This document shows positions 44,762 through 61,906 of a stretch of 64,000 nt of DNA, piece by piece (positions within the stretch are counted from its first letter, which is position 1; every line of letters starts with the position of its first letter). Source of the DNA: Flavobacterium sp. I3-2 (GTDB taxonomy: Bacteria; Bacteroidota; Bacteroidia; Flavobacteriales; Flavobacteriaceae); the NCBI RefSeq assembly GCF_013389595.1, contig NZ_CP058306.1, forward strand, positions 1,674,001 to 1,738,000, given 5' to 3'. Position numbers and translations under genes: made by a program. The notes below the pieces were generated by a model. The model made no database searches and was not told the origin of the DNA. It saw only the letters and a list, made by a program, of their open reading frames with translations.

Positions 44762-46131
44762 TTGCATTTTCAAATACAGGTACAGGTTTTAAGGGTGCAA
44801 TTTCTTATGCGTTAAAAGAGCATGAGAAAAATTTACCAGCTCATCAAAAACCTGTTGTAGTGGAGCAAAATAATATTTGGGGAACTTCTTCTGAAATTGC
44901 TAAACAAATGCGGTTTATTGCAGATTCTAATTCCAAAAGTTCTCGCCCTGTGCTTCACATTGCTTTTAGTTTTCATAAAGATGAAAAGTTGCCGTTGGAA
45001 AAAAGCATAGAAGCAATGCACCTTGCGTTACAGGAAATTAATTTTCACCGAGAAAAAAATCAATATCTTTTGGTTCAACACAATGATACAGATGTGGAAC
45101 ATTATCATTGGATCATCAACAAAGTGGATTTGAATGCTAAAAATTTAGACACGAGCTACATTAAAAACCGATTGCAGGTTGCTTGCGATAAGGTAGAGAA
45201 GCAGTTGAAATTACGCTACACCCAGGGGAGAACTATTATTTATGATCCGGAATCTGAAAAAGGTTATAAGTTCACGCAAAAAGCAAATCTTAAGAATAAA
45301 ATTTTTAAAGATAAGTCGATCAATATTTCAGATGTCAAGCAATTTATTTACGATGAATTGATACGAATTTTATCGTATTTAAAAACAATTGAACAATTAG
45401 TGCCTGAACTTTCAAAAAAAGGAATTGCTTGCCAAACAACTTTTAATAAAAATGGATTAAGCGGAGTTTCGTTTCGATACAACAATCAAGCATACAAGGG
45501 AAGTCAGATTGGTGTAAAAGCAAAAGATATTGTAAATGCCATACAACAAAACCAAACGTTAGGTAGTAAAGATCATATAACATTGTTGAATGCTTTTCAT
45601 AAAAATATACAGACTACTTTAAAAGCTATTGTAGCTGATTATGAAACCGGAAATCCGTATCCTGATTTTGAAAAGTGTTTTTTAAATAATGAAATTCGTT
45701 ATGAAGATGAAAAGTTGTTTTTCAAAGGTTATCGTATCTCCAACAAACCTATTGAATATTTTAGAAAAGCAGCCGAAACCTTTGTTTTGGGTTCATTAAA
45801 AAACTTTGAATATAAAATGTATTGCTACAATGATTTGATGAATCAAGAACCTAGGAAAGTTCCGCTACTATTTGGTAGGGATAAAATTCTTACAGAAAAT
45901 AAGCAATTATTAAAAGAGCAGCAGAATGCAGTTGAACCGCAATTAAAAATTAGAATAAGTCGTTCTATTATTCCTGATTTTTCAGGTGTTTTTCTGAAAA
46001 GTATAAAACACCACAAAGATAAATTAGCAGAATTAACAGAAAACAAAAAAACTACAATCGCTAACATAGAAAAACAAAAAAAAATTAGAAAGGAAGTTAG
46101 GATAATGCTTGTGAAAATTCTTAGGTTGTAG
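44758..46131 (+). CDS. mobA: Relaxase/mobilization nuclease (MOBP-like)
   Basis: A 457-residue relaxase. The metal-binding motif is HND...HYH (His108, His115, His117) in VQHNDTDVEHYHWIINKVD, and a conserved N-terminal stretch GFKGAISYALKE precedes it. The C-terminal 150 residues are charged and helical with no coupling or helicase domain. It would nick oriT and stay attached to the 5' end, with a co-resident conjugative element supplying the channel. No type IV secretion genes are in the window. Confidence 0.9.
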   Translation: MIAFSNTGTGFKGAISYALKEHEKNLPAHQKPVVVEQNNIWGTSSEIAKQMRFIADSNSKSSRPVLHIAFSFHKDEKLPLEKSIEAMHLALQEINFHREKNQYLLVQHNDTDVEHYHWIINKVDLNAKNLDTSYIKNRLQVACDKVEKQLKLRYTQGRTIIYDPESEKGYKFTQKANLKNKIFKDKSINISDVKQFIYDELIRILSYLKTIEQLVPELSKKGIACQTTFNKNGLSGVSFRYNNQAYKGSQIGVKAKDIVNAIQQNQTLGSKDHITLLNAFHKNIQTTLKAIVADYETGNPYPDFEKCFLNNEIRYEDEKLFFKGYRISNKPIEYFRKAAETFVLGSLKNFEYKMYCYNDLMNQEPRKVPLLFGRDKILTENKQLLKEQQNAVEPQLKIRISRSIIPDFSGVFLKSIKHHKDKLAELTENKKTTIANIEKQKKIRKEVRIMLVKILRL

Positions 46132-46277: not shown

Positions 46278-48230
46278 TTGGAACTTTCAAGTAAATTAAA
46301 ATTAGAAATTTTAAGAGTATTATTAGCGGAAAAAGAACTATTTGGAAAGCCTGATGATGAAGAAAATGTTATCAAGTTCTTAGATGATTTGTTTGATTTG
46401 AAAACACTGCCTTCCGAAGATTCAAGGTTTAGAAATGCCTACGAAGATGCTTATCAGCATTTGGTAAATAATTATGATTGGGAATATGAATATGTATTTA
46501 CAGAAAGGTTTAATATTATTGATAATACCGAAACCTTTGTCAAGTTTTTAAACAAAATTATTCACCCTAGTTTAAGGGAAGATGAAGATGATATTTTCAA
46601 GTTTTATACAATCATTAATCCATATTTAGAAAAAGGAAAATTAAATTATAGTTTAGTTTCATATGAAGAAGGAGGTTTTCCAGTCTATGAGGTGAGTATA
46701 TATGACGATAATGACACATCTCCCATAAACATTATTCAAAATAAGATTCCATTTTTTATTGATAACTTACCTAAAGGATATTACAATAATCCAAACTCTC
46801 ATGATAAACCAAGTGTCTTTCCTTCCTTCGTACTTGTTAACGATAGAGATTGGAACGATTTTTTCAAGTATACGGGTTATTTTCTTTTTTACTATCCAAC
46901 AGTAGATCAATGTGTAGAAATAGGTGCGCTCAAAATTATTACTAAAGAAATCGAAAATATTTCGAACATATTAAGTGACAGTTTTTATAATTTGGACAGT
47001 AGTTATTGTTCCTTAGGTTTTGATTTTAAATTTTACGAGAATATTAAAACAGTATTTGGTAAAACCTATGAAAGTATTTTATGGGCTTTGAAAGATGCTG
47101 CATTCTTTTCAGAAATTTTAGAGGAATTCGAAAATGATTACTATTTCAGGAATTCATTAATTAGATTTGATGAACAAGAACAATTACTAAGAGAAGCAAA
47201 ACATCGTTTAGAAGGGTACGATATAAAAAGCTTGTACAGTTTCAAATACTCCTTTAAACCAAAATTTTCTAGCGATTCTGTCTCAATCGACTTTAATTTT
47301 GACTCTGAAAAAAGTATTCCATCAAGAATATTTGCCATAATTGGAAAAAATGGAACAGGAAAAACCCAATTGATTACAACCCTACCACTTGATATATCTA
47401 AAAAAAATGATATAGCTTTTATTCCTAAAAGACCCATTTTTAGTAAAGTTGTAGCTGTATCATATAGTGCTTTTGACACTTTTGATATTCCTAAAAAGAC
47501 AGCGGATTTTAATTATGTTTATTGTGGCATAAGAGACCCTAAAGGTGAATTATATACTGAAAGAGGTCTAAAATTGAGATTTCACAATTCATGGAAAAAA
47601 ATCAAAGAAAAAAATAGATTTGACAAATGGAAGAACTTACTACATTTTTTTATGGAAGAAGAATTAATCAATGAGTTTATTATTTTTAATGATAATTCTT
47701 TCGAGTATACCGTTGATATAAAAGGTTTCAATAGTGTAAGTAAAAAATTAAGTTCCGGTCAGAGTGTTTTATTATATATAATAACAGAAATTGTAGCGAA
47801 TATAAGATTTGATTCTCTAGTCATTTATGATGAACCGGAAACACATTTACACCCAAATGCAATATCACAACTAATAAATACAATTTATCAGTTAACTCAA
47901 GAGTTCCGATCATATTGTATTATTGCAACTCATTCACCAATTATAGTTAGAGAATTACTTTCCAGAAATATTTATATAGTGGAGAGGGAAAGTAATGTAA
48001 TTTCTGTCAGAAAACCGTTGGTTGAAACATTCGGTGAAAACCTTACAATGATAACAGAAGAAATATTCGGTAATAGAGATGTACCCAATCAATTTGAAAA
48101 AATATTATCGCGATTAGCTAAGACAGGTAAAAGTTATGAAGAAATACTATCTGTAATAGAAACTGAAAATATTCCATTGAGTTTAAACGCACGTATTTAC
48201 TTAAAAAGTATTATTGATGAAAAATCTTAA
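46278..48230 (+). CDS. ABC-type AAA ATPase, PtuA-like (Septu-type defence)
   Basis: A 650-residue cytosolic ATPase: Walker A GKNGTGKT (356-363), ABC signature LSSGQ (491-495), Walker B LVIYDEPETHLHP (514-526) and switch His in IIATHSP (552). The first 340 residues are an all-alpha/beta domain without known motifs, longer than in many PtuA proteins. The HNH nuclease gene follows with a 14-bp overlap, the signature of the Septu pair PtuA-PtuB. The start is TTG; a stop lies two codons upstream and no ATG is near. A retron Ec78-type system is ruled out within this locus by the lack of a reverse transcriptase. Confidence 0.8.
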   Translation: MELSSKLKLEILRVLLAEKELFGKPDDEENVIKFLDDLFDLKTLPSEDSRFRNAYEDAYQHLVNNYDWEYEYVFTERFNIIDNTETFVKFLNKIIHPSLREDEDDIFKFYTIINPYLEKGKLNYSLVSYEEGGFPVYEVSIYDDNDTSPINIIQNKIPFFIDNLPKGYYNNPNSHDKPSVFPSFVLVNDRDWNDFFKYTGYFLFYYPTVDQCVEIGALKIITKEIENISNILSDSFYNLDSSYCSLGFDFKFYENIKTVFGKTYESILWALKDAAFFSEILEEFENDYYFRNSLIRFDEQEQLLREAKHRLEGYDIKSLYSFKYSFKPKFSSDSVSIDFNFDSEKSIPSRIFAIIGKNGTGKTQLITTLPLDISKKNDIAFIPKRPIFSKVVAVSYSAFDTFDIPKKTADFNYVYCGIRDPKGELYTERGLKLRFHNSWKKIKEKNRFDKWKNLLHFFMEEELINEFIIFNDNSFEYTVDIKGFNSVSKKLSSGQSVLLYIITEIVANIRFDSLVIYDEPETHLHPNAISQLINTIYQLTQEFRSYCIIATHSPIIVRELLSRNIYIVERESNVISVRKPLVETFGENLTMITEEIFGNRDVPNQFEKILSRLAKTGKSYEEILSVIETENIPLSLNARIYLKSIIDEKS

Positions 48231-49065
48231 TGTATATAATAGGAATGTTCATGATTTTTTAGATGACATAGTAAGATCTAAAAAACACACACAAAAGGAT
48301 CCAAATTTTAAACAAAGATTAGCTTTATTAATTCCTAATGTTAACGCATGTTATGATTTATATAATATTGCTCACGATGCTAATAACCATGTTTCACTTA
48401 TAGCTCATGGTTACATTGGTCAGGATCAAAATGATTTATTAAAATTATACAATTCTAAAGCAGTTAAGTTAGTTAATTTCAAAAATGATGCGACAACAGT
48501 TTTAGATAATAGAGCCTCAACTATATGTCAATATTGCACAATCAATTCAGCTAACACATTAGATCATATTATCCCAAAGGTTGAATTCGTTGAATTTGCT
48601 GTTAATCCAAAAAATTTATTACCAGCTTGTTCAGAATGTAATGGATATAAATTAGATCGATTTAAAAACAATCAGGATAGATTATTTTTAAATCTATACA
48701 CTGATTTATTACCTTCAGTTCAATATTTATTTGCTGATGTTATAATTATTAATAACATAGTAGAAGTAGATTTTAGGCTGTCAAATGTAAATAATATAGA
48801 CCCTCGTTTATTCAGACTTCTTGAAAGTCATTATGAAAAATTACATTTGTTTCGTAGATTTAAGAGTAAATCAAATACTATTATAAGTGAAATGATTAAC
48901 TCAATTAATGCCTCGATAAACCAAATATCAAGACAAACTTTTATAGATATAACTCTTGATAAAATCAATAGAGATAAATTATTACATGGGCACAATCATT
49001 ACAAATTAATATTAGAGGAGGCTCTTATAAATAACAATGCTTACCTTAGTCAATATTTTCCATAA
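48217..49065 (+). CDS. HNH endonuclease, PtuB-like (Septu-type defence)
   Basis: A 282-residue HNH nuclease. The finger has two Cys pairs, CQYC (104-107) and CSEC (138-141), around the catalytic LDHIIP (Asp116-His117), with Asn133 and NGYK at 142-145. Helical regions precede and follow the nuclease. The start overlaps the ATPase gene; an adjacent TTG at 48214 is also possible, but the ATG is preferred. In Septu the ATPase holds or gates the nuclease until phage infection, and that model is assumed here by family. Confidence 0.82.
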   Translation: MKNLNVYNRNVHDFLDDIVRSKKHTQKDPNFKQRLALLIPNVNACYDLYNIAHDANNHVSLIAHGYIGQDQNDLLKLYNSKAVKLVNFKNDATTVLDNRASTICQYCTINSANTLDHIIPKVEFVEFAVNPKNLLPACSECNGYKLDRFKNNQDRLFLNLYTDLLPSVQYLFADVIIINNIVEVDFRLSNVNNIDPRLFRLLESHYEKLHLFRRFKSKSNTIISEMINSINASINQISRQTFIDITLDKINRDKLLHGHNHYKLILEEALINNNAYLSQYFP

Positions 49066-49375: not shown

Positions 49376-49406
49376 TTGTAAGATCCTATCAATTATTGTA
49401 CTTTTG
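49376..49406 (+). promoter_or_regulatory. Promoter of restriction-modification operon
   Basis: -33 TTG at 49376-49378, a 20-bp spacer, and -7 TACTTTTG at 49399-49406, the best Bacteroidetes promoter match in the window. It is 23 bp before the control gene ATG. Confidence 0.7.
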
Positions 49407-49420
49407 ACCGCTTAGGTCAA
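49404..49420. promoter_or_regulatory. Palindromic operator (C-box candidate)
   Basis: Perfect inverted repeat TTGACC-N5-GGTCAA overlapping the end of the -7 box and the expected start point. A bound control protein would block RNA polymerase. The XRE protein encoded just downstream is the obvious binder. Confidence 0.6.
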
Positions 49421-49429
49421 TTTCATACT

Positions 49430-49720
49430 ATGATAAAAACAGGAGATATAATACGGAAAAAAAGAATAGAAATTGGTATTTCTCAAAAAGACTTAGCGTC
49501 AAAAATTGGCGTAGATGTTTCTTTTCTTTGCAAAATTGAAAAGAATGAAAAGAAGTTAAGTTTAGAGAAACTAGAATTAGTTTCAACTATTCTAAATTTA
49601 GACTTTCTTAAATATAAAAATGAATATTACTATGACAAGGTTGATTCGATTTTTGAAAATGAAAAAGAGGATTATAAGGTTATGATAATTAATAATATAA
49701 TTAATAAAAACAATGTATAG
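49430..49720 (+). CDS. XRE-family control (C) protein of restriction-modification operon
   Basis: A 96-residue protein with a lambda-repressor-type HTH (GDIIRKKRIEIGISQKDLAS, then KIGVDVSFLCKIEKNEKKLS; residues 4-45) and a short helical tail. It precedes and overlaps (8 bp) the first methyltransferase gene. Size and position match C proteins, which delay restriction until the host is methylated. A perfect palindrome in its own promoter supports autoregulation. Confidence 0.83.
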   Translation: MIKTGDIIRKKRIEIGISQKDLASKIGVDVSFLCKIEKNEKKLSLEKLELVSTILNLDFLKYKNEYYYDKVDSIFENEKEDYKVMIINNIINKNNV

Positions 49721-50900
49721 TTTTGTCGATTTATTTGCAGGATGTGGAGGATTAAGTGAAGGTTTTTACAAAGAAGGTTTTAAAGCATTGGCTCACGTTG
49801 AAATTAATAAATATGCGTGTGAAACTTTGAAAACTAGAATGAAATTCTACGGTTATGAAAATGTTGATGATGAAGTTTTAAATGTAGATATAACTAATGA
49901 AAATATAAATGAAATTATCGATAATGCAGTAAAAAATAGAAATGTAGATTTAATTGTAGGAGGTCCTCCTTGTCAAGCTTACTCAACTTTAGGTAGAGCT
50001 AAAGATAGTAATGCAATGCATGATGATCCACGTAACTTTTTATTTGAAAGTTATATCAAAGTATTACATCATTTAAATCCAAAACTTTTTGTTTTTGAAA
50101 ATGTTACTGGTCTATTAACTGCGAAGTTAAACAACAAGTCGATTTTAGATACCATACTTAAAAAATTGGGTAAAAATTATAAATTAATTAAGTCACCCAA
50201 GGGAATGGTTTTAAATTCGGCTGATTATGGTGTTCCTCAAATTAGAAAACGTGTTATTATAATAGGTGTTAGAAAGGATTTACCATTTGATGCAGATGAA
50301 GTTTATAAAAATATTTTAAAAACGAATTCTGATTCTTACGAATCTAACTTGAAGCCTTATGTTACTGTGTCTGATGCAATTAGTGATCTACCTTCTTTAA
50401 AAGCTGGAGAAGGTTCTGATGTTGTGAAATTTAAATCAAGTCGTACTAATAATTTTTTAGATGAAATTGTGGATAAAAAATCTAATATTTTAAGACATCA
50501 TGTAGCTAGAAAATTGAACAATTTAGATATTGAAAGATATTCAGTAATGAGTAAGAATAATTGGGTATTTACTCAATTATTGGAAAATAGAGAAGATTTA
50601 AGACATCCTAAGCAAAGAATTTTCAATAATAGTTATTGTGTACAATTTTGGGATAAACCTGCACGTACTATAATAGCACATTTATATAAGGATGGTAACC
50701 AATTTATACATCCAGATCATAAACAAGGGCGCTCTATAACTCCAAGAGAAGCAGCAAGATTGCAGTCTTTTCCTGACGATTTTGTATTTGAAGGATCAAG
50801 AACAGAAATTTATAAGCAAATAGGTAATGCAGTTCCTGTACTATTAGCTCAAGCTATTGCTAAAGGATGTAAAAATGTTTTAAAGAAATATGATATTTAA
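49713..50900 (+). CDS. DNA (cytosine-5-)-methyltransferase M1
   Basis: A 395-residue 5mC methyltransferase with all core motifs: I FVDLFAGCGGLSEGF (4-18), IV with catalytic Cys87 (GGPPCQAYS), VI FVFENVTGL (127-135), VIII QIRKR (176-180), and IX/X REAARLQSFPDDF with KQIGNAVPV. The target-recognition domain, between VIII and IX, covers about residues 190-325. It is the first of two MTases in this operon. In LlaJI-type systems two such enzymes methylate the two strands of an asymmetric site, which is the likely arrangement here. Confidence 0.95.
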   Translation: MYSFVDLFAGCGGLSEGFYKEGFKALAHVEINKYACETLKTRMKFYGYENVDDEVLNVDITNENINEIIDNAVKNRNVDLIVGGPPCQAYSTLGRAKDSNAMHDDPRNFLFESYIKVLHHLNPKLFVFENVTGLLTAKLNNKSILDTILKKLGKNYKLIKSPKGMVLNSADYGVPQIRKRVIIIGVRKDLPFDADEVYKNILKTNSDSYESNLKPYVTVSDAISDLPSLKAGEGSDVVKFKSSRTNNFLDEIVDKKSNILRHHVARKLNNLDIERYSVMSKNNWVFTQLLENREDLRHPKQRIFNNSYCVQFWDKPARTIIAHLYKDGNQFIHPDHKQGRSITPREAARLQSFPDDFVFEGSRTEIYKQIGNAVPVLLAQAIAKGCKNVLKKYDI

Positions 50901-52407
50901 GAATATTAAAGAAATAAACGATAAAAAATTAAAGGTAACTTTTTTAGAGAAGATAGATCTACATATTAGAATTGTAGATTCTTTAGCTGTGCTTAATAAT
51001 TTAGATATCGAAAATTATAATGATTCAGTTGATGTAAATACCGCAAAGTATTTAATTGAATTAGGTATTATTTATGCTGATACAGAAATACCGTTATTGA
51101 AGAAAATATTATCTTCAAGATTTCAATCATTTATAAAGAGTGTAAATTTTACAATCCAGAATAATAAGATTATTGGTAATCATTTAGATAAATTGAATAA
51201 TTCAATTCGTTTAAAATATCAACAAAAAGAAAATGCTTTAGATAAACCTACACTAGTTGATTTCTTTTGTGGGGCAGGAGGTCTAAGTTTAGGATTTGTA
51301 AAAGAAGGTTTTAAAGTTATTTTAGCTAACGATCACGAAGATGTTTGTATAGATACATATTCTTACAATCATCCAGAAGTTAGAGATGATAAAATTATTA
51401 ATGGTGATATTAGAAAAATCGTAGATAATGTAAAAGATTATATTGATCAAGATGTAGATGTTATTGTTGGTGGTCCTCCTTGTCAAGGATTTAGTTCTGC
51501 AAATCAGCAACGTATTATTGATGATCCTAGAAATGAATTATATAAATATTTCATTAAAGCGATTACGCATTTAACTCCAAAATTTGTTGTGATGGAGAAT
51601 GTTAGAGGAATGCTTCCTCATGCACAACAAGTTATTGATGATTATAAAGATATCGAAAGTTTAAAGAAAGGTATTAATTATACTTACGATGTAAATTGTA
51701 AAATTTTAATTTCTGATGATTTCGGTGTTGCTCAAAAAAGACAACGTTTAATTTTTATAGCAATTAGAAATGACGTTGCTAAAGAAAATAATATAACTCC
51801 GGATAAAATATTTGAACAAATTATTTCTAATTCAGACTCAATTAAAAGACATATATTAAATGATGCCTTAGAATATATCAAGCCATTAGAACCAAATAGA
51901 GTTAAAAATTCTAACGAAATTGATAGTGATGAGTCTGGTAAAAAAGTAGATGTAAATCAATTTAATGGTAATGAAAATTCTTATTTGAAATTAATTAATA
52001 ATGGTAGAAGTATTCCATTAATTTTTAATCATAAATCTCGATTTGTTAATGATTTAAATTTTGATATTTATAGATTACTAGACCAAGGTGATGATGCCAC
52101 AAATGAAAAAATTGCTCATTTAATGCCTTACTCTCATCGTAATAATGTTTTTAAAGATAAATATTATAAATTAGTGGCAGATAAGCCTTGTAGAACTATT
52201 ACTGCACATATGAGAATGGACTGTCATTCACATATTCATCCTTATGCAGTTAGAAGTTTATCACCAAGAGAAGCTGCAAGGATTCAATCTTTTCCAGATG
52301 ATTATGTTTTTATGGGAGCTTATCTTAAAACATATATGCAAATAGGAAATGCAGTACCTCCAATAATGGCTTCGTATGTAGCTAAAGAGATAAAAAAATA
52401 TTTATAA
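50890..52407 (+). CDS. DNA (cytosine-5-)-methyltransferase M2 with N-terminal extension
   Basis: A 505-residue second 5mC methyltransferase overlapping M1 by 11 bp. Motifs are I LVDFFCGAGGLSLGF (122-136), IV with Cys198 (GGPPCQGFS), VI VVMENVRGM, VIII AQKRQR, and X MQIGNAVPP. An extra 120 residues at the N-terminus carry no known motif and may help recognition or pairing with M1. Its target-recognition domain differs from that of M1, as expected if each enzyme modifies a different strand or sequence. Confidence 0.94.
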   Translation: MIFKNIKEINDKKLKVTFLEKIDLHIRIVDSLAVLNNLDIENYNDSVDVNTAKYLIELGIIYADTEIPLLKKILSSRFQSFIKSVNFTIQNNKIIGNHLDKLNNSIRLKYQQKENALDKPTLVDFFCGAGGLSLGFVKEGFKVILANDHEDVCIDTYSYNHPEVRDDKIINGDIRKIVDNVKDYIDQDVDVIVGGPPCQGFSSANQQRIIDDPRNELYKYFIKAITHLTPKFVVMENVRGMLPHAQQVIDDYKDIESLKKGINYTYDVNCKILISDDFGVAQKRQRLIFIAIRNDVAKENNITPDKIFEQIISNSDSIKRHILNDALEYIKPLEPNRVKNSNEIDSDESGKKVDVNQFNGNENSYLKLINNGRSIPLIFNHKSRFVNDLNFDIYRLLDQGDDATNEKIAHLMPYSHRNNVFKDKYYKLVADKPCRTITAHMRMDCHSHIHPYAVRSLSPREAARIQSFPDDYVFMGAYLKTYMQIGNAVPPIMASYVAKEIKKYL

Positions 52408-53108
52408 TGACACTTACATTTACTAAAAAAATAACGAAATCAAATTTAGGAAAGGCAGATATGCATCATTGCTATATAACAATTCCTAAACGACAAGTTG
52501 ATCCAAATAACTTTTTTGGTAAACCAAATGGAAAAAAAAGAACTATTATAGATAAATTAACTGGAATTCCTTTTGAATTTACATATAGTCAAAATCAAAG
52601 TAAAAAAAACAAAGAACATAGATTATCAAGTTTTTTAACGTATTTCAGATTAGTTAATGCTCAAGTCGGTGATATTTTATGTGTTGAAAAATTAATTGAA
52701 AATGTAAAAGGAAAACAGAAAGTAAAGTTTTATATGTCAATTATTGATAATGATTCTTATTTTGATAATGGTGAGGATAATGTAGAACTTTATGAAGGAG
52801 CAAAGAAAATAATTATAGTTAATAAATATGAACGTAGTCGAAAAGCTAGGAAAAAATGTTTAGAATATCATGGCTATAATTGTAAAATTTGTAATATATT
52901 ATTAGAGGATAAATATGGTGATATTGCATCTAAGTATATACATGTACATCATTTAACGAAAGTTGCTGATATTGGTAAAGAGTATATTATAAATCCAATC
53001 CAAGATTTGGTTCCTATTTGTCCAAATTGTCATAGTATGATTCATAAATTGAATCCGATGTTATCTATAGAAGAATTAAAATCAAGAATTATAGAGAATG
53101 AAATCTGA
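52407..53108 (+). CDS. HNH endonuclease with possible EcoRII-N/B3-like N-terminal domain
   Basis: A 233-residue protein. The C-terminal HNH finger (about 145-225) has CKIC, the catalytic HVHH (HVHHLTK) and CPNC followed by HSMIHK, an McrA/restriction-type pattern. The N-terminal 110 residues contain SNLGKADMHHCYITIPKR, FF and VGDILCVEKL, a layout resembling the EcoRII N-terminal/B3 DNA-binding fold. That likeness is my inference. It shares a base with the M2 stop codon. It may be the sequence-specific nuclease of the system or an accessory to the McrBC-like pair downstream. Confidence 0.8.
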   Translation: MTLTFTKKITKSNLGKADMHHCYITIPKRQVDPNNFFGKPNGKKRTIIDKLTGIPFEFTYSQNQSKKNKEHRLSSFLTYFRLVNAQVGDILCVEKLIENVKGKQKVKFYMSIIDNDSYFDNGEDNVELYEGAKKIIIVNKYERSRKARKKCLEYHGYNCKICNILLEDKYGDIASKYIHVHHLTKVADIGKEYIINPIQDLVPICPNCHSMIHKLNPMLSIEELKSRIIENEI

Positions 53109-53730
53109 AAAATATATCAAAATACTTAATAATACAGAATTAGGTAAAGGTAACACCAATGAGAGTTATGTTTTAGTAACAGGAGCCTATAATGTAAATG
53201 ATATTTTTAACGGCTTTATTAATTATACAACTAATTTTATTGATAAGACTGATAATAGTATTGTTTCAAATATAAGACTTCAATCTGGTGATGAAACTAG
53301 AATTGTAGGATTAGGTCCTTATTATAGAAAACATGATTTAAATGCAGGAGATTTTTTAATATTTGAAAGATTTGAAAATTCAGATGGTTCTACATTATTC
53401 TATTTAAATAATATTAAGAAAAATAACAATATAATTTTACAAAAAGTCGGTTCTAAAGGGTATGAAATTCTAACACAAAATGTACCCACTCTATACCCAC
53501 TTATTATCGATCCATGTTTCTTTAATGAAGATTATAAAAAAAATGTAGAAATTAGATTTAAGCAATCTATACGTAAGCGTTCAGACTCTCCAAATATTAC
53601 AGATTTTTATGAAATATTAGTTGATGGTATTTCTTTAAATTTACGTGATAAAGAAATGATAGAAATTGTAATTGATGATAAAATTATAAAACAATTAACA
53701 ACTTGGAATAAATATACTCTACAATGGTAA
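53098..53730 (+). CDS. Possible free-standing B3-like DNA-recognition protein
   Basis: A 210-residue protein without an established family that I can name. Its first 110 residues parallel the N-terminus of the preceding HNH protein: LNNTELGKGNTNESYVLV against TKSNLGKADMHHCYITI, and YYRKHDLNAGDFLIFERF against YFRLVNAQVGDILCVEKL. There are no nuclease motifs. It overlaps the genes on both sides (11 bp with HNH, 7 bp with the McrB-like gene). LlaJI.R1 homologues carry a B3-like recognition domain fused to the AAA+ motor, so this could be the same module split off. Confidence in the fold is low; confidence that it is a gene is high. Confidence 0.72.
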   Translation: MKSEKYIKILNNTELGKGNTNESYVLVTGAYNVNDIFNGFINYTTNFIDKTDNSIVSNIRLQSGDETRIVGLGPYYRKHDLNAGDFLIFERFENSDGSTLFYLNNIKKNNNIILQKVGSKGYEILTQNVPTLYPLIIDPCFFNEDYKKNVEIRFKQSIRKRSDSPNITDFYEILVDGISLNLRDKEMIEIVIDDKIIKQLTTWNKYTLQW

Positions 53731-55151
53731 AAAAATATCTTTTATATATTCATGATTTAGGATCATTTACTAGTTTGTCTCCTACATCTCAAATAATTTT
53801 TTCATCTGAAAATATTATTACTACCGCTTATTTAGAAGCATTTAATCAAAATGATAAATTTTTAGTTATTTCTGAGCATAGATCATTCCTTCTGAATTTC
53901 CAAAACTTGAATAATACTGAAATTACATTTAATAAAATATTCGAAATTGAAATAGAAAGTAACTTGAATTCTATTACAAATCCATTTAAAGAGATACAAG
54001 AAATAGAATATAATAAACTTTTATCTTCATTATTGGTAAATTTAATTAGTGTAGATTCTAACCTGGATAAAAATCAAGAGAGAGTTATAGATAATATCGA
54101 ATCGCAATCATTAATTAGTGGTTTCAACAAAATCTATTTCGGTTCTCCAGGTACAGGTAAATCCCATAAAGTAGATAAGACAATTGAAAAATTAAAATCT
54201 CATTATTACGAAAGAGTAACTTTTCATCCCGAGTTTGATAATTCAACTTTTGTAGGAGGATACAAACCTATTTCTGTAAAAGTTAAATTTTATGAAGGAG
54301 AAAATGAATATTTTGAAAATGAAGTACATTATAAATTCGTACCACAAGCCTTTACCAATATTTATGAACGTGCTTGGCAAGATTTAGACAATCAATACTA
54401 CTTAGTGATTGAGGAAATCAACCGTGGTAATTGTGCTGAAATCTTTGGTGAAATTTTTCAATTATTAGACCGTAATTCAAACTACACCGTTTCGCCAAGT
54501 AAAGAATTAAAAGAATATTTAATGCACGAAGCATTTAAAGATGAGAATCATGATGGAATTATTAATGGCTTAAAACTACCTCCTAATTTAAGTGTTTTGG
54601 CAACAATGAATACTTCTGATCAATCTTTATTTCCAATGGATAGTGCTTTCAAAAGACGTTGGGATTGGGAGTATGTTCCTATCTGTTATGAAGAGTATTA
54701 TCTAGATGAAAATAGCAGTAAACAAAAAAATGATTCATTTGATTTCGTAATTGATATTCAAGATGGAGAAAAATACAGCTGGATTAAATTTATTGAGAAG
54801 GTCAATTTAAATCACATTAAAAGCAATCAATCTTTAGGAATGGATAAATGTATTGGGAATTATTTTATCAAACCGGAGAAGGATAACACAATAGCACTAA
54901 AACCTTTCATTAACAAAGTGATTTTTTATTTATGGAATGATGTTTTTAAAGACGAAGACAATAAAGTTTTCGAAGAAAACACCTCTTACGAAGATTTTTT
55001 CCCAATAAACACGAATGGTAAAAAGAAAATAAAGGAATTATTTGATAGAATTGAATTAAAACCAAAACTTAAAGAACCTTTGATTTATGCAGAAGATGAT
55101 GTACAACTTAGTCAAGTAGCCGAACCGCAACAAGAATTAGAGTCGAAATAG
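53724..55151 (+). CDS. McrB-like AAA+ motor (LlaJI R1-like restriction subunit)
   Basis: A 475-residue AAA+ NTPase. Walker A is GSPGTGKS (140-147), Walker B YLVIEEINRGN (226-236), and the McrB-type MNTSDQSL (295-302) stands in place of the GTP-recognition MNTADRSL. KRRWDW (310-315) supplies the arginine finger. The N-terminal 130 residues are unassigned and shorter than a full DNA-recognition module. It directly precedes the McrC-like nuclease gene (no gap). It would translocate DNA and activate the nuclease as in McrBC and LlaJI. Confidence 0.88.
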   Translation: MVKKYLLYIHDLGSFTSLSPTSQIIFSSENIITTAYLEAFNQNDKFLVISEHRSFLLNFQNLNNTEITFNKIFEIEIESNLNSITNPFKEIQEIEYNKLLSSLLVNLISVDSNLDKNQERVIDNIESQSLISGFNKIYFGSPGTGKSHKVDKTIEKLKSHYYERVTFHPEFDNSTFVGGYKPISVKVKFYEGENEYFENEVHYKFVPQAFTNIYERAWQDLDNQYYLVIEEINRGNCAEIFGEIFQLLDRNSNYTVSPSKELKEYLMHEAFKDENHDGIINGLKLPPNLSVLATMNTSDQSLFPMDSAFKRRWDWEYVPICYEEYYLDENSSKQKNDSFDFVIDIQDGEKYSWIKFIEKVNLNHIKSNQSLGMDKCIGNYFIKPEKDNTIALKPFINKVIFYLWNDVFKDEDNKVFEENTSYEDFFPINTNGKKKIKELFDRIELKPKLKEPLIYAEDDVQLSQVAEPQQELESK

Positions 55152-56831
55152 ATGAAAATTCTAATAGAAAAAGAAATATATCCAATTGAATTACTTGAAG
55201 AAGTATTTGATGATCCAAAGTTTTATAAACAAAACGGTTTGGATGGAACAATTACGTCTGTTGGTTACTACCATTCTTTTGAAAAAAACAGTTTAGTTTT
55301 TATGTTGCCTAAAGTTTTTATGGCTGAAGATGAAGAAACGGTTTTCGATTGTACTAAAGAAGAGTTAGTTGACTTGATCAATAACGAATCAATTAAGCAT
55401 AAAACCCAATATAATTGGGTACGTCAGTTATCAGTACATTTTTATAACAGTTTAATCGAGTTTAGAAAAAGATACAATCAAACTTCAATAATTTTAGATA
55501 CTGAAACTTTTGAGCTAAATACCAATTTAGGAGATAAGGAATATTCCTTTTTAGACCTTTTATTGAGTTTCGTCAACTTCTATAAAAAAAACAAGCATCA
55601 AATTTTATTCAAACATATTGAATTTGTTTCCAATCAAGCCAAAAAGCCAAAATGGGAAAAGACGATTAGAAAGTCACTTCCTATCGTAACAAATGGTAAA
55701 GCACCTATATATATTGAAATTACCAACAAAAAGAAAATTATAAATACGGAAGAAGAATTATTAACCTATTTTTTTTCTATTTTAAATCATTTAAATAAAG
55801 AATATAAACTGAATCTAAAAATTGATAAATCGTTCAATTTTATATCAGGTCAACAGTTTGAAAACTTATGCCAAAACGGTTCATCTAAATTGCGTAAAAT
55901 CAAACACCGCTACTTCAACGATACATTAAGAAGGATGTATGTGTTATGTGAAATGTATTTTTCTCAATTTGACAAAAGTAGTAGTAAACGAAAGCGAGAA
56001 GATTTTTTAGCTATCTACAACTATAATTTAGTTTTTGAAGACATGGTTGATAAATTATTTTCAGATAAACTCAATATGCTAGACGTTGATGGTATTACAA
56101 TAGATAAGCTGAAAAAAAATGATGATGGTAAAATTATTGACCATATTTATGATTATAAGTCTTTAATTGATACTAGTAATATATTTTATATTGGAGATTC
56201 GAAATACTATAAATCAGACAGTTCAGCTGGTAAGTTGTCAAAATACAAACAATTTACTTACTCCAAAAATGTCATTCAATTTAATATTGATTTATTGAAC
56301 AAAAGGGGGCAGCAGCATTTAGGTAACTTAAGATATAGGGATAAATTAACGGAAGGCTATAACATATCGCCAAATTTCTTCATTTACGGTTACATTGATG
56401 ATATTGATAACTATGATGAACATTCGGTAAAGAAAAAGGGCAATCCCCAACCTTCATGCCATTTTGAAGAACGATTATTTGACCGAGATACACTTTTTGT
56501 ACACCAATACAAAATCAATTTTTTATTTGTATTAAAAGCCTATACACATTTTAATGAATTTGAGATACAAGTTTTTAGAGATGATGTTAAAAAACGATTC
56601 AGAAAACACTTTTTAGAATTTTTAAATAATCAACACGAGTGTGGTTTTGAATTTTACGAATGCAATAAGACTCTACATGAATATAAATCATTTGTAGAAG
56701 ATAACTTTAAAAAATTAAACGGAAAATGTTTTTGCACTATCGACAACAGATTACTAATAGCAAAACACCATAACGATAAAGAATTAGATGCATTATTAGA
56801 AGATTTTATCAAAATAGACCAACTCACCTAG
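55152..56831 (+). CDS. McrC/LlaJI-like restriction endonuclease subunit
   Basis: A 559-residue LlaJI/McrC family nuclease. The PD-(D/E)xK core is seen as Glu296 (YNLVFEDMVD), Asp330 (KIIDHIYDYK) and the D-x-K of FYIGDSKYYK (Asp349, Lys351), followed by YKQFTYSKNV. The N-terminal 200 residues match the McrB-interacting region only by position. It starts at the base after the McrB-like stop codon. Two 5mC MTases followed by McrB- and McrC-like subunits define the LlaJI-type system, which cuts unmethylated DNA. Confidence 0.87.
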   Translation: MKILIEKEIYPIELLEEVFDDPKFYKQNGLDGTITSVGYYHSFEKNSLVFMLPKVFMAEDEETVFDCTKEELVDLINNESIKHKTQYNWVRQLSVHFYNSLIEFRKRYNQTSIILDTETFELNTNLGDKEYSFLDLLLSFVNFYKKNKHQILFKHIEFVSNQAKKPKWEKTIRKSLPIVTNGKAPIYIEITNKKKIINTEEELLTYFFSILNHLNKEYKLNLKIDKSFNFISGQQFENLCQNGSSKLRKIKHRYFNDTLRRMYVLCEMYFSQFDKSSSKRKREDFLAIYNYNLVFEDMVDKLFSDKLNMLDVDGITIDKLKKNDDGKIIDHIYDYKSLIDTSNIFYIGDSKYYKSDSSAGKLSKYKQFTYSKNVIQFNIDLLNKRGQQHLGNLRYRDKLTEGYNISPNFFIYGYIDDIDNYDEHSVKKKGNPQPSCHFEERLFDRDTLFVHQYKINFLFVLKAYTHFNEFEIQVFRDDVKKRFRKHFLEFLNNQHECGFEFYECNKTLHEYKSFVEDNFKKLNGKCFCTIDNRLLIAKHHNDKELDALLEDFIKIDQLT

Positions 56832-56863: not shown

Positions 56864-58945
56864 ATGAAAATTACTCAACTCACAGTTACCAATTTTAGAT
56901 TGCTGGAAAATATTACAATCAACATAGAAGATGACATAACCTTAATTGTAGGAAAAAATAACACAGGTAAAACGTCATTATTTGAAGTTATAAACCTATT
57001 TTTTGACATCAAGAATAGGATATCTTTTCATGATTTCTCTTTAAATAGTCATGATGTTTTCAAATTATGCGATGCAAAATTTCAAAATGAATTGTTAGTT
57101 GAAATTAAGGATGATAAGAAAGATGAAATTGAAAAGTCTTTGATTAATGATATACCTAAGATCACTTTAAGTATTCAAGTTGAATATGATAAGGTGAAAG
57201 ATTCTTTAATTAATATAAGTGATTTTATTTCCGACTTAGATGATACGAAATCAGATGCTACAATTCTTTTTAAATACGAACCTAAAGAAACAATTAATTT
57301 GTTTAGGTCATTTCATAATAGACCCAATAAGGACGTTGAACTAATAGAGTGGTTAAATGAGAATATATCATCTTTCTACACACTCCATGTTTTTGGTGGT
57401 GAAAACTTAATAGAAGATCATGTTTTAACGAAAATACTTTCGGTAATAAATTTTGAGACAATCCAAGCATCAAGAAAACTTGATGATACAAAAATGGATA
57501 AAAACAGATCTTTGGCACTTGGATTTTCTGACTACTATCAAAACATTCATGGAGATAATAATGCAGATGTAGAAAGTTTGAAAGATACGCTGAAAAGTGT
57601 TTCTACTGTTTTAGATGGCAAGTATGAAAAGGTTCTTGAAAAAATCCTTGAGAAATTGAAGTCTTTTGGTATTGATAAGGATATTAATATTCCTGAGATT
57701 ATACTGAAATCAAAATTTGATCCTGAATCAATTATTCGAAATAACATAAAGTACTATTACAAAAGCGGTGATATAGAACTGCCAGAAAATTACAATGGAT
57801 TAGGTTATAGCAACCTAATATTTCTTGTTTTAAAAATTGTAGCCTTTATTGAAAATTTCAAAAAAAACAAAGAAAAAAATGCAACTGAAATTCTGACAAT
57901 TTTAATAGAAGAGCCTGAAGCGCATTTACATCCTCAAATGCAACAAGTTTTTGTAGAGCAAATAAGAGAAACAATTTCTAAGGCTTTAATTGAGGATAGT
58001 ATTCAAGTACAATTAATTATTAGCACTCATTCATCTCATATGATTGCCGAAGCAGGTTTGAATGTCAAACGAAGCTTTGAAAGAATACGATATTTCAATA
58101 AATATAAAAAAGAAGATAGAACAATTGTTGAGGTAAAAGATTTTAATGAATTTAAGCATAAGGAAACAGATAAAGATACTTTTCGATTTTTAAAGCAATA
58201 TTTAAATCTGCATAAATGCGATTTGTTTTTTGCAGATAAAGTTATTATGGTCGAGGGAATCACAGAAAAAATATTAATGCCATTATTTATTAGAAAAGTA
58301 GCTAAACAACTTGAAAATGAATATGTATCCATAATTGAAGTTGGAGGAGCATATACCCATAAATTTAAAGAATTTTTTAAGTTTTTAAATACAAAGGTTT
58401 TGGTAATAACTGATATTGATTCTGTGGACGCTATGACGAATAAATCTTGTCACGTACTAAAAGAAATGGCAAACACAAGTAATTCAACATTGTCAACCTG
58501 GTTACCTCAAAAAACAAAAATTTCTGAATTATTGGCCTTGACTTTTGATGAAAAACTAGATGAATCTAAAATTATTAGAGTAGCTTTTCAAATTAAAGAA
58601 GATGATGGAGATTTTGTGCCAAGAAGTCTAGAGAATGCCATAATTAATTGTAATCAAACATTTTTTAAAAGTAAATATTTACTCGAAGGTGAAATAGAAA
58701 AAGAGGTTTATAAATCTTTTTCTTTTCAAAAGTTGAAGAACATAGATGAATTGATCTATATGGATACAAGTAGAGATCAATCTGATGTAGACCCTTCTTC
58801 AAAACAAAAGACAGATTTTACATTTGATTTAATGACTTTTGATGAAAAGGGAACTAATCTTGAATGGAAAGTGCCTAAGTATATAAAAGAAGGTTTAGAA
58901 TGGTTGTCAAAAAACGAACATTTATTAACAGTAAAAGTTGATTAA
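56864..58945 (+). CDS. gajA: Gabija protein GajA, OLD-family ATPase/Toprim nuclease
   Basis: A 693-residue OLD-family endonuclease. The ABC ATPase has Walker A GKNNTGKT (30-37), Walker B ILIEEPEAHLHP (346-357) and the switch His in IISTHSS. The Toprim domain has Glu464 (IMVEGITEK) and DID (517-519). It is longer than the about 580-residue GajA I know, mainly in the middle and the C-terminus. A UvrD-type helicase gene follows 1 bp after the stop, the GajA-GajB layout of Gabija. In Gabija, GajA forms a tetramer and nicks DNA when nucleotides are depleted. It lies 32 bp after the McrC-like gene. Confidence 0.88.
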   Translation: MKITQLTVTNFRLLENITINIEDDITLIVGKNNTGKTSLFEVINLFFDIKNRISFHDFSLNSHDVFKLCDAKFQNELLVEIKDDKKDEIEKSLINDIPKITLSIQVEYDKVKDSLINISDFISDLDDTKSDATILFKYEPKETINLFRSFHNRPNKDVELIEWLNENISSFYTLHVFGGENLIEDHVLTKILSVINFETIQASRKLDDTKMDKNRSLALGFSDYYQNIHGDNNADVESLKDTLKSVSTVLDGKYEKVLEKILEKLKSFGIDKDINIPEIILKSKFDPESIIRNNIKYYYKSGDIELPENYNGLGYSNLIFLVLKIVAFIENFKKNKEKNATEILTILIEEPEAHLHPQMQQVFVEQIRETISKALIEDSIQVQLIISTHSSHMIAEAGLNVKRSFERIRYFNKYKKEDRTIVEVKDFNEFKHKETDKDTFRFLKQYLNLHKCDLFFADKVIMVEGITEKILMPLFIRKVAKQLENEYVSIIEVGGAYTHKFKEFFKFLNTKVLVITDIDSVDAMTNKSCHVLKEMANTSNSTLSTWLPQKTKISELLALTFDEKLDESKIIRVAFQIKEDDGDFVPRSLENAIINCNQTFFKSKYLLEGEIEKEVYKSFSFQKLKNIDELIYMDTSRDQSDVDPSSKQKTDFTFDLMTFDEKGTNLEWKVPKYIKEGLEWLSKNEHLLTVKVD

Positions 58946-58946
58946 G

Positions 58947-60779
58947 ATGGAGGCATTTGAGCAAATAAAGCAATGTATTGAAGTTAATTCAAGCTTTGTG
59001 GTGGAGGCTGGTGCAGGTTCTGGAAAGACTTATACATTAATTCAAACCCTCAATTATTTAATAGAAACTAAAGGAGAGGTATTACATACTAAAAAACAAA
59101 ATATAGTTTGCATTACTTACACGAATGTTGCTAAAAACGAAATCATTAAACGGATTGAATATAATGACTTAGTTGAGGTTTCTACAATTCATGAGTTCTT
59201 ATGGAAGTCTATCAAACAGTTTCAGAAGCAATTGAGAATTGAACTTTGTAAACTTAATGAAATAAGGTTAAAAATTGATGAAACTAAAGGTAATGAAACA
59301 AAATACATTAAAAATCTGAATGAGCGGATTAATTTAGTTAGTGAAGTTTTTTACAACGATTCTTCTTTTCGTGATTTTGAAAAAGGTGAACTTCATCATG
59401 ACGACGTGATTGAGTTGTCAAAAATGCTTTTTAAAGAATATCCATTATTAACCTCTATTATCGCTCAAAAATTTCCATATATTTTAATTGATGAGTATCA
59501 GGATACTTCAATAGAAACAATTGGAGCATTAATAGATTGTTTATTAATGCGTAATAAAGACAAGATAATCCTTGGATTTTATGGCGACTCTCATCAAAAA
59601 ATTTACGATACTGGAATCGGAAGTCTTGAAAATTATTATGAAGGAGAAAATAAAGTACTTAGGTTAATCAAAAAAGAAGAAAATTATAGATCGTCAAGAG
59701 CTGTGGTTGATCTACTTAATAACTTTAGAACAAACATTAAACAAGAACCCAAAAGGGATGTAGACGGATCTATAAAATTTATTTATTGGGGAAATCATCC
59801 TGAAAAAGAACCCAAACAAAAGGTTAGAGAGTTTGAAGATTCCTTAAAAAAGTTTAAAAATGATTTTTATGAGGAAGTTAATCATAAATTGATTGGGTTG
59901 GGCTGGGATTTCAGTAGCAATAATTTAGATAAGATTTTAGTGTTAGCTAACAGTAGAATTGCAGATAGAGCTGGATTTTTGAAATTATATAAAATTTATT
60001 CTAAACGATATGGTCAATCAACGAAAGAACGACTTTTAGATAGAAATCATTTTCTAATTAAGTTGTTTACCGGATATATTGATAAAAAGACTTCTCAAGA
60101 GAGAGAAGTTGGTTTAGAACATCTCATGACTTACTGGTTGGAAAATAATCATAATAAAGCGATTAGATTTTTAAGAAGAAATGGAACTGCTTTACATGAA
60201 TTTCAGCATCCTAAGAAAAAAGAAATATCTGATATACTAGATGATTTATCCAATAATAGAAGTAATAAAACAGTAAAAGAAGTATTAGATGTTGTTTTGC
60301 AAAAAGGGATTGTTTATTCTAAAAATTATGAAGAATTTATTTCTCGCATTTATCAAGATTTGGAAGGCATTAATCCAGAAATCCAAGAAAAAATTGAAAA
60401 GGACAAAACCTTTTATGAATCATTTATAAATCTTTCATATAGTGAAATTATAAACTTTTGGAAACATATCCAGAATGAAACAGTTTTCTCAACTAAACAT
60501 GGAACAAAAGGAGATGAATATAGAAATGTATTAACTGTGATTGATGATACTGAATGGAAGCAAGAATATAATTTTAATAATTTCTTTAATAATTGTGACG
60601 AAAAGCCTGAAAGGTCGTTAAGAACCCGTAATCTTTTTTATGTTGAATGTTCAAGAGCCAAAGAAAATTTAGTTGTTTTAATGTTATCTAAAATTGAAGA
60701 TGATGCTTTAGTAAATATTAAACAATGGTTCGGGGAAATAAATGTATTAAATATAGATGATTATTTAAAATCAGAATAA
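58947..60779 (+). CDS. gajB: Gabija protein GajB, UvrD/Rep-like helicase
   Basis: A 610-residue superfamily 1A helicase: motif I AGAGSGKT (21-28), Ia CITYTNVAKNEI, motif II LIDEYQD (180-186), motif III GFYGDSHQKIY, motif IV EENYRSS, motif V TKHGTKGDEYRNV and motif VI FYVECSRAKENLVV. The length exceeds the about 500 residues of typical GajB. The ATG at 58947 is chosen over a TTG 9 bp upstream. It is the partner of the preceding OLD-family nuclease, and three further small genes follow at 3 bp or less. Confidence 0.88.
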   Translation: MEAFEQIKQCIEVNSSFVVEAGAGSGKTYTLIQTLNYLIETKGEVLHTKKQNIVCITYTNVAKNEIIKRIEYNDLVEVSTIHEFLWKSIKQFQKQLRIELCKLNEIRLKIDETKGNETKYIKNLNERINLVSEVFYNDSSFRDFEKGELHHDDVIELSKMLFKEYPLLTSIIAQKFPYILIDEYQDTSIETIGALIDCLLMRNKDKIILGFYGDSHQKIYDTGIGSLENYYEGENKVLRLIKKEENYRSSRAVVDLLNNFRTNIKQEPKRDVDGSIKFIYWGNHPEKEPKQKVREFEDSLKKFKNDFYEEVNHKLIGLGWDFSSNNLDKILVLANSRIADRAGFLKLYKIYSKRYGQSTKERLLDRNHFLIKLFTGYIDKKTSQEREVGLEHLMTYWLENNHNKAIRFLRRNGTALHEFQHPKKKEISDILDDLSNNRSNKTVKEVLDVVLQKGIVYSKNYEEFISRIYQDLEGINPEIQEKIEKDKTFYESFINLSYSEIINFWKHIQNETVFSTKHGTKGDEYRNVLTVIDDTEWKQEYNFNNFFNNCDEKPERSLRTRNLFYVECSRAKENLVVLMLSKIEDDALVNIKQWFGEINVLNIDDYLKSE

Positions 60780-60782
60780 TTT

Positions 60783-61331
60783 ATGAAGATAGCAATATTA
60801 GGATGGGGATCGTTAATATGGGATTCTAGGAATTTAAGATTTGATAAAAAAATAGGTTGGAATACTGGAGGACCAATATTACCAATTGAATTTGCAAGGA
60901 TATCAGGTGATGGTCGTCTTACATTAGTTATTACAGAGAGTGGAACTAATGTAAAAACTTTATATTCAATATCAGAATCTAACAATATTGAAGAAGCAAA
61001 AGAAAATTTAAGAAGTAGAGAAGGAACAAACTTAAATTTTATAGGTTCTTATAATAAAGGTGCAGATACATTTATCCCTGAAGATTTTTTATTTAAAGAA
61101 AATATAAAGTCTTGGATTAAAGAAACTGATTTAGACTTTGTTATATGGACTAACCTTGCTGAAAAATGGATTACAAGTAATAAAAGTGTGATAGATTCTG
61201 AAGATCGAATAAATTACCTAGAAATGTTAGAAGGTGATACAAAAGCAAAATCAATAGAATATATACAAAAAGCACCAGATCAAATTCAAACACAATATAG
61301 ACAAAAAATTAAAAATAAATTAGGATGGTAG
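60783..61331 (+). CDS. Small protein with YGSL-like N-terminus, putative GGCT-like fold (Gabija-associated)
   Basis: A 182-residue protein starting 3 bp after gajB. The N-terminus AILGWGSLIWDSR resembles the YGSL glutamine-cyclization loop of gamma-glutamylcyclotransferase-like enzymes, and LPIEFARISGDGRLTLVI could be the next strand pair. The catalytic Glu of GGCT is not clearly placed. I do not know a function. Its position ties it to the Gabija pair or to the nuclease that follows (7-bp overlap). Confidence 0.6.
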   Translation: MKIAILGWGSLIWDSRNLRFDKKIGWNTGGPILPIEFARISGDGRLTLVITESGTNVKTLYSISESNNIEEAKENLRSREGTNLNFIGSYNKGADTFIPEDFLFKENIKSWIKETDLDFVIWTNLAEKWITSNKSVIDSEDRINYLEMLEGDTKAKSIEYIQKAPDQIQTQYRQKIKNKLGW

Positions 61332-61906
61332 ATAAATTTCAATATATCTTAAAAGATTTTGATAGTTTAATTGATCAATATATACTTCAAATAGAAGAAG
61401 AAATTAGTAATGTCGATTTTGATAGTACTGCATCTTTTGAATTTAAATTAAATAATGAATTTGATTCATCAATATTTAAAGGAAAAGATAAAATCAGAGG
61501 ATTATATTTTTTTGAAGTTGACTTAGATAGTACTATACTGAAGGGACAAAAAAGAATAACTAAGTTGAACAGACTTATACAAGATTGGGGTAAAAAGAAA
61601 AATGATTCTTTTTTTTCATCAAGTGTAATTAAAGGTAAGGTAAAACATTATGATGCATTTGACAAAAGGTGGTTACCACTTTATATAGGAAAAAATAAGG
61701 ATGTCTATAAACGCATTATTGACCATATTGAACTTAAATCAACTTCACAAACGTATGCAATGAAATTAAGACATCGTAAAAATTTAAATGATATAAATTT
61801 CAGAGTTAGTATATTAAATATAGACATAGTTAATTATGATTTCATTGTTCCACATATTGAAAGAACCTTGCGAGAAAAGTACAAACCAATAGTTGGTAAA
61901 CAATAA
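61325..61906 (+). CDS. GIY-YIG-like nuclease domain protein
   Basis: A 193-residue protein. IRGLYFFEVD (residues 56-65) and LPLYIGKNKDVYKRIIDHIE (about 118-137) correspond to the GIY and YIG blocks with the downstream Arg (KR). The C-terminal HIERTLREKYKPIVGKQ has the Glu and Pro-x-x-G pattern of the metal-binding helix. The two halves are separated by a longer insert than usual. It overlaps the preceding gene by 7 bp. Possible effector nuclease in the Gabija tail; catalytic activity is inferred from the motif only. Confidence 0.66.
   Translation: MVDKFQYILKDFDSLIDQYILQIEEEISNVDFDSTASFEFKLNNEFDSSIFKGKDKIRGLYFFEVDLDSTILKGQKRITKLNRLIQDWGKKKNDSFFSSSVIKGKVKHYDAFDKRWLPLYIGKNKDVYKRIIDHIELKSTSQTYAMKLRHRKNLNDINFRVSILNIDIVNYDFIVPHIERTLREKYKPIVGKQ

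What the first reader, a model, noticed from the sequence alone, without database searches (positions are those of the whole stretch)
52407..56831. LlaJI-like restriction system with its DNA-recognition module apparently split onto two separate proteins
Two 5mC methyltransferases followed by McrB-like and McrC-like subunits match the LlaJI layout. Here two extra genes intervene. One is an HNH protein whose N-terminus, and the other a stand-alone protein, share a pattern (LGK near the start; Y-[FY]-R followed by GD and an acidic strand) that resembles the EcoRII-N/B3 fold. In LlaJI R1 homologues the B3-like module is fused to the AAA+ motor. A split recognition subunit plus an added HNH nuclease would be an unusual hybrid of type II and McrBC-like logic.
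Basis: partly seen in the sequence, partly recalled or inferred. Interest (0 to 1): 0.72.

Follow-up and report, generated by a model that had tools for sequence, protein, structure and literature searches.

The report
Restriction operon with separate DNA-reading subunit
A bacterial anti-virus gene cluster keeps its probable DNA-reading part on a separate protein instead of on the motor that hauls DNA to the cutter, and adds a second DNA cutter with its own reading domain, which suggests such enzymes can be built from exchangeable parts.

Summary
The 210-aa protein (P210) models at pLDDT 90; residues 1-110 match solved B3 domains, including Helicobacter LlaJI.R1, UbaLAI, BfiI and EcoRII-N. The HNH protein's N-terminus is a B3 paralogue (hhalign 96.5%). 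"Split" is only half right: these are two complete B3 domains. In all 24 loci compared, P210 directly precedes the motor gene; a B3-HNH gene is seen in 4, including an orthologue in the same slot in another genus (37%), there with another motor and nuclease. It accompanies P210 in 24 of 24 loci and was not found in 31 related loci without P210. Methyltransferases, P210 and this domain behave as one specificity block found on two distinct motor-nuclease chassis. Best reading: a LlaJI/McrBC-superfamily restriction-modification system with a detached B3 specificity subunit and an accessory B3-HNH nuclease; a new variant of a known kind. DNA binding and target site are untested; BsuMI, a possible precedent, could not be compared.

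The parts
49404..49420 (.). Inverted repeat TTGACC-N5-GGTCAA, 9 nt before the HTH gene: probable operator of the controller
   Evidence: Only exact match in the window; with up to 1 mismatch 2 found, 0.09 expected. Also 15 nt before the HTH gene in L101 and L104; not found in L116 or L117
49430..49720 (+). HTH_3 controller-type regulator (96 aa)
   Evidence: PF01381 1e-10; PADLOC control-protein models
49713..50900 (+). M1, cytosine-5 DNA methyltransferase
   Evidence: PF00145 3.7e-68; region between motifs VIII and IX conserved in the 15 P210 loci examined
50890..52407 (+). M2, cytosine-5 DNA methyltransferase with ~118-aa N-terminal extension
   Evidence: PF00145 7.3e-67 over 122-503
52407..53108 (+). 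B3-HNH nuclease (233 aa): B3 domain ~1-118, HNH ~146-215
   Evidence: hhalign to P210 96.5%; PF01844; orthologue in L117, 36.6% over 235 aa; CxxC pairs and HVHH invariant in 7 of 7
53098..53730 (+). P210, stand-alone B3 specificity subunit: B3 ~1-110; second beta-rich part ~111-200 of unassigned fold
53724..55151 (+). McrB-like AAA+ motor (475 aa): EVE/YTH-like domain ~1-111, helix to ~122, AAA+ from ~135
   Evidence: AAA_5; Walker A at 140, EE at 230, MNTSD at 295; N-terminal model pLDDT 79.4, YTH/EVE matches
55152..56831 (+). McrC-like PD-(D/E)XK nuclease subunit (559 aa)
   Evidence: hhalign to RE_LlaJI-type set 91.2%; D330...D349-S-K351 kept in 4 of 4

Best explanation
A restriction-modification operon of the LlaJI/McrBC superfamily. 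M1 and M2 methylate one fixed target site. P210 is a detached specificity subunit whose B3 domain binds that site when unmethylated. It hands the site to the McrB-like AAA+ motor by contact with the motor's EVE/YTH-like N-terminal domain. NTP hydrolysis, presumably GTP, drives translocation and the McrC-like PD-(D/E)XK subunit cuts. The B3-HNH protein is an accessory nuclease that brings its own B3 reader to the same or a related site and relies on the same methylation for self-protection. The HTH protein controls expression through the upstream inverted repeat. Shown by computation: gene order, domains, predicted folds of P210 and of the motor domain, homology of the two B3 domains, linkage and module exchange. 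Inferred: site binding, P210-motor contact, translocation, shared specificity of B3-HNH, regulation.
For: P210's B3 fold and the HNH B3 homology. P210 lies directly before a motor gene in 24 of 24 loci; the named ones are Bacteroidota or Bacillota records. The motor's N-terminal domain accompanies P210 in 24 of 24 (14 of them built the profile; 9 others by profile, L013 by eye) and was not found in 31 related loci without P210, 29 of which hold a motor. Exchange both ways: L117 keeps M1/M2 (62/61%), B3-HNH (37%), P210 (40%) and the domain, but has a PDC-M26A-type motor and a DUF2357-PDDEXK_7 nuclease. The Pedobacter plasmid locus L019 keeps motor (54%) and nuclease (52%) but has other methyltransferases (27-37%) and shows no P210, B3-HNH or N-terminal domain. 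Methyltransferase region VIII-IX is 47-84% (M1) and 51-88% (M2) identical to the window in the 15 P210 loci examined, against 11-35% for six methyltransferases from three loci without P210. Catalytic motifs look intact.
Confidence: 0.62

Rival explanations
1. B3-HNH is a passenger: an independent small type II-like nuclease captured in the operon and merely shielded by the same methylation, with no part in the motor system.
For: Not seen in 20 of 24 loci; stand-alone B3-HNH genes without another P210 match exist (L025, L026, L027, L029, L030), one beside another methyltransferase fragment (L026).
Against: Genes overlap with M2 and P210; orthologue in the same slot in another genus although motor and nuclease differ; equal contig lengths suggest co-occurrence in 4 of 7 close relatives.
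Confidence: 0.4
2. P210 and B3-HNH act as a pair, each reading one orientation of an asymmetric site (as two methyltransferases may do), so the recognition unit is truly divided between them.
For: Two B3 proteins in 5 of 24 loci (window, L117, L009, L014 with B3-HNH; L104 with a second P210); shared signature residues.
Against: In 19 of 24 loci only one B3 protein was seen (some contigs are cut short), although both methyltransferases are kept wherever the contig reaches them.
Confidence: 0.13
3. The EVE/YTH-like domain is the true reader and the system attacks modified phage DNA like McrBC, P210 being a regulator or a self-DNA marker.
For: EVE/YTH domains serve as modified-base readers in other McrB proteins (PMC7641849 and PMC12707154, passages); the domain always accompanies this system.
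Against: Dedicated M1/M2 with a conserved specificity region argue for restriction of unmethylated DNA; the domain is poorly conserved (3 invariant columns of 14 rows).
Confidence: 0.12
4. It is simply the BsuMI/LlaI three-gene type already in the literature, P210 being the known third subunit.
For: LlaI and BsuMI have three restriction ORFs and short motors of 337 and 343 aa (PMC1459862 section 5).
Against: A 252-aa ORF before the 337-aa motor on pUCCL629C (L021), taken here as LlaI-like by size and not named so in the record, is not P210-like (0.1%); such a negative is weak. That 337-aa motor starts with the AAA domain at residue 8, leaving no N-terminal domain.
Confidence: 0.15

Closest known systems
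LlaJI (Lactococcus plasmid pNP40; L020)
   Same: Two 5mC methyltransferases, McrB-like motor and McrC-like nuclease in one operon; Helicobacter LlaJI.R1 has a B3 domain (6c5d)
   Different: R1 itself binds the site (PMC1459862, passages); no separate B3 subunit or HNH gene annotated; no EVE/YTH-like domain found in R1 (0.1%); methyltransferases 25-26% identical
LlaI and BsuMI three-ORF cassettes (PMC1459862)
   Same: A separate third restriction gene beside McrB- and McrC-like genes
   Different: Motors of 337 and 343 aa; BsuMI's third subunit not compared; a LlaI-like 252-aa ORF gave no B3 signal
CglI/NgoAVII (PMC4267653, passages)
   Same: B3 reader and NTP-driven motor on different proteins that must interact
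McrBC (E. coli; T. gammatolerans)
   Same: AAA+ motor with NxxD motif plus PD-(D/E)XK partner; YTH or EVE N-terminal domain in some homologues
   Different: Type IV, no cognate methyltransferases; specificity domain fused to the motor
PcaI (PMC8989522, passages)
   Same: McrBC-like restriction of unmethylated DNA with a cognate 5mC methyltransferase
   Different: One methyltransferase and two restriction genes, as described in the passages seen

Membership tests
LlaJI-type restriction-modification | Two C5 methyltransferases, McrB-like motor and McrC/LlaJI-like nuclease in one operon | tested here: met
LlaJI-type restriction-modification | B3 recognition domain fused to the motor's N-terminus | tested here: not met
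   Motor gives 0.7% to the P210 B3 profile and its N-terminus models as an EVE/YTH-like fold; B3 domains are on separate proteins
LlaJI-type restriction-modification | Nuclease matches RE_LlaJI PF09563 | tested here: inconclusive
   No Pfam match; homology seen only by profile comparison, 91.2%
LlaJI-type restriction-modification | Restricts unmethylated site-bearing DNA | not testable with these tools
   Needs experiment
B3 / EcoRII-N fold (P210) | Fold match to solved B3 domains | tested here: met
B3 / EcoRII-N fold (HNH N-terminus) | Homology to an established B3 domain | tested here: met
   hhalign 96.5% to P210, 18 other sequences at most 1.1%; not folded on its own
EVE/YTH (PUA-like) fold, motor N-terminus | Fold match to solved EVE/YTH domains | tested here: met
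EVE/YTH (PUA-like) fold, motor N-terminus | Modified-base pocket | not tested
   No sequence-level match to EVE or YTH; pocket residues not examined
McrBC type IV | No cognate methyltransferases; acts on modified DNA | tested here: not met
   M1 and M2 lie in the same operon; activity untested
BsuMI/LlaI three-ORF type | Third subunit homologous to P210 | tested here: inconclusive
   LlaI-like ORF negative; BsuMI sequence not obtained

The most novel reading that the evidence does not exclude
A two-key restriction enzyme: P210's B3 domain finds the target sequence, and the motor's EVE/YTH-like domain then inspects the methylation state of a base at that site before the motor is released. Sequence and methylation reading would sit on two proteins. 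The pair, with its methyltransferases, would be a portable specificity cassette that can steer two distinct motor-nuclease engines, and its B3 reader was also wired to HNH nucleases.
Probability: 0.2. Interest if true: 0.82.

Novelty: new variant of a known kind. Interest (0 to 1): 0.6.

Why it matters
If right, McrBC-type enzymes have a counterpart of the type I specificity subunit: a small separate reader that can be coupled to different motors and nucleases. That gives a natural test of how sequence recognition is transmitted to an AAA+ motor. It also suggests a role for two protein families, P210 and the motor N-terminal domain, for which Pfam, NCBIfam and PADLOC gave no match over cut-off or none at all (P210; domain). 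The natural exchanges (L117 and L019) are ready-made chimaeras for experiments.

Tried and rejected
Viral contigs with the P210 alignment: 46 stretches matched a pattern, none encodes a relative. P210 in plasmids: no match. BsuMI YdiR: no readable record found. LlaJI.R1 (L020) and the 252-aa LlaI-like ORF gave no B3 signal with the P210 profile; this shows little, since Helicobacter LlaJI.R1 is a solved B3 domain and the profile is family-specific. I first thought that the B3-HNH fusion arose independently in the window and in L009/L014 (position differs, and L009/L014 align over both P210 parts), but the tree does not reject a single origin (p-AU 0.17-0.24), so this is open. Target site not predicted: the nearest solved methyltransferases are HaeIII, HhaI, DNMT1 and an unnamed-specificity enzyme. 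Promoter and terminator scans are at chance level. P210 residues 111-200 have no assigned fold and were barely tested by the fold search. PMC6066307 and PMC6970917 (LlaJI.R1 and T. gammatolerans McrB N-terminal domain structures) are not held; they are known here only from a reference list.
Full report
What is there. The stretch 49430-56831 holds seven tightly packed + strand genes: HTH, M1, M2, B3-HNH, P210, McrB-like motor, McrC-like nuclease. Neighbouring genes overlap by 1-11 nt at five of six junctions and abut at the sixth, which suggests one transcript. The finding's span 52407-56831 is exactly the last four genes. M1 and M2 are C5 methyltransferases. The motor has Walker A at 140, EE at 230 and MNTSD at 295, the NxxD signature of McrB (signature from PMC11090510, passages). 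The McrC-like subunit is too diverged for Pfam RE_LlaJI, but a four-sequence profile aligns to six RE_LlaJI-type proteins at 91.2%, control 0.2%, with D330 and D349-S-K351 kept in 4 of 4.

The HNH protein. Its first ~115 residues align to P210 1-107 (96.5%, E 9.5e-10). The single protein against the P210 profile gives 94.9%, while 18 other proteins, shuffles and reversed sequences give 1.1% or less. Both B3 domains share E-x-R, GD and a following E. The HNH part keeps two CxxC pairs and HVHH in 7 of 7 sequences. Five close database clusters exist (71-83%). By equal contig length, 4 of 7 close P210 relatives appear to share a contig with a B3-HNH relative; this is indirect.

Neighbourhoods. Of 17 genome-contig loci found with the P210 alignment, a methyltransferase match lies beside P210 in 17 of 17, and a motor matching the window's by BLAST in 15 of 17. 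The other two are L007, with another motor type, and L013, whose motor frame was masked in my ORF caller but is there. In L002 two other genes lie between M2 and P210. Whole-genome searches gave full-length P210 in 2 of 395 genomes of the window's phylum (7 further genomes had partial matches: five B3-HNH genes, one solo B3-like gene, one apparently chance), 4 of 397 of the L009 family (a fifth match looks like chance), 2 of 395 of the order at E 1e-8 and 3 of 199 of the genus at E 1e-6; these sets overlap. With L117, found through the HNH search, there are 24 distinct P210 loci. In that HNH search 14 of 199 family genomes matched; the window and L117 (residues 9-229) cover the B3 part, while the other matches begin at residue 68 or later and were not followed. 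A B3-HNH protein lies nearby in 4 of 24 loci (window, L117, L009, L014) and a second P210 in 1 (L104); several contigs are too short to exclude one.

Module exchange. L117 (another genus of the family) keeps HTH-M1-M2-B3-HNH-P210 and the motor domain, but its motor is PDC-M26A-like and its nuclease DUF2357-PDDEXK_7. L007 and L116 have the same chassis without HNH. The two nuclease types show no homology by hhalign (0.1%), although DUF2357 is the McrC N-terminal domain according to PMC11090510 (passages), so this may be another McrBC branch. Conversely the Pedobacter plasmid pA27BH1 (L019) keeps motor and nuclease at 54% and 52% but has methyltransferases at 27-37% and none of P210, B3-HNH or the domain. 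So M1, M2, P210 and the motor domain, sometimes with B3-HNH, go as one block. The region between methyltransferase motifs VIII and IX, where specificity resides (established knowledge of C5 methyltransferases), is 47-84% (M1) and 51-88% (M2) identical to the window in the 15 loci examined; every window residue is aligned in 15 of 15 for M1 and 13 of 15 for M2. This points to one shared target site.

Against. L101 has M1/M2 90/87% identical to the window's and McrC 69%, but P210 only 25%; a reader of the same site should change more slowly. L104 carries this divergent kind of P210 before the motor and a window-like P210 (42%) after McrC. Stand-alone B3-HNH genes occur in genomes with no other P210 match (L025, L026, L027, L029, L030). 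Of 392 Bacillota genomes, 26 have RE_LlaJI (27 matches); in the 26 loci re-fetched, a motor lies directly before the nuclease in 24, two hold only nuclease fragments, and P210 is in none; it appears only in the seed genome. So P210 is a minority layout.

Regulation. TTGACC-N5-GGTCAA lies 9 nt before the HTH gene here and 15 nt before it in L101 and L104, 3 of 5 HTH-bearing loci examined. It is probably the controller's operator (inference).

Literature. LlaJI's two-subunit enzyme and the three-ORF LlaI and BsuMI cassettes are in PMC1459862 (passages and section 5). LlaJI as a B3-using relative of McrBC is in PMC12707154 (passages). CglI/NgoAVII separate B3 and motor (PMC4267653, passages). The McrBC census PMC11090510 names methyltransferase-associated branches and defers them to a later paper (passages); a find there gave 0 hits for HNH, EcoRII and B3-like. 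The listings of searches showed no title or abstract start describing a separate B3 subunit with an EVE/YTH-like McrB motor; only open-licence papers are searched and I read no paper in full, so this is not proof of novelty.

Verdict. The interpretation changes from 'split module' to 'detached specificity subunit plus accessory B3-HNH nuclease, with an EVE/YTH-like domain on the motor'.

Noticed in passing
window 56864-60779: Complete Gabija pair (GajA, GajB) starts 32 nt after the McrC-like gene (PADLOC): two defence systems back to back.
   Followed up: no
window 46278-49065: AbiJ_NTD3-AAA ATPase overlapping an HNH gene, a Septu/retron-effector-like pair, just upstream; another AAA-HNH pair follows the second P210 in L104.
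   Followed up: partly
window 44758-46131 and 60783-62574: MobA/VirD2-type relaxase upstream, and two small genes without Pfam match plus an 8xMP membrane protein downstream: the island looks mobile.
   Followed up: no
L104 6256-6939 and 10142-10807: Two divergent P210 genes in one operon, one before the motor and one after McrC.
   Followed up: partly
L007, L116, L117: Same specificity block on a PDC-M26A-like NTPase and DUF2357-PDDEXK_7 nuclease, a possible function for that PADLOC candidate.
   Followed up: partly
L017 8640-11601: P210 operon whose nuclease matches the McrBC family PF10117 instead of RE_LlaJI: perhaps a third chassis.
   Followed up: no
L009 11177-12331, L014 11230-12342: P210-like protein (both parts) fused to HNH, directly after McrC in two Lachnospiraceae.
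   Followed up: partly
L025, L026, L027, L029, L030: Stand-alone B3-HNH genes of about 277-308 aa; L026 sits beside what by eye is a TSPPY-type methyltransferase, partly masked.
   Followed up: no
L028 1456-1881: Solo 141-aa EcoRII-N-like protein between what by eye are an SNF2-type helicase and a GHKL-type ATPase: another detached B3 reader.
   Followed up: no
L101 10406-13646: GHKL ATPase and response-regulator-like gene directly after the McrC-like gene.
   Followed up: no
L004 11165-11611, L009 12353-12799: Vsr mismatch endonuclease genes near the P210 operons, fitting repair of deaminated 5mC.
   Followed up: no
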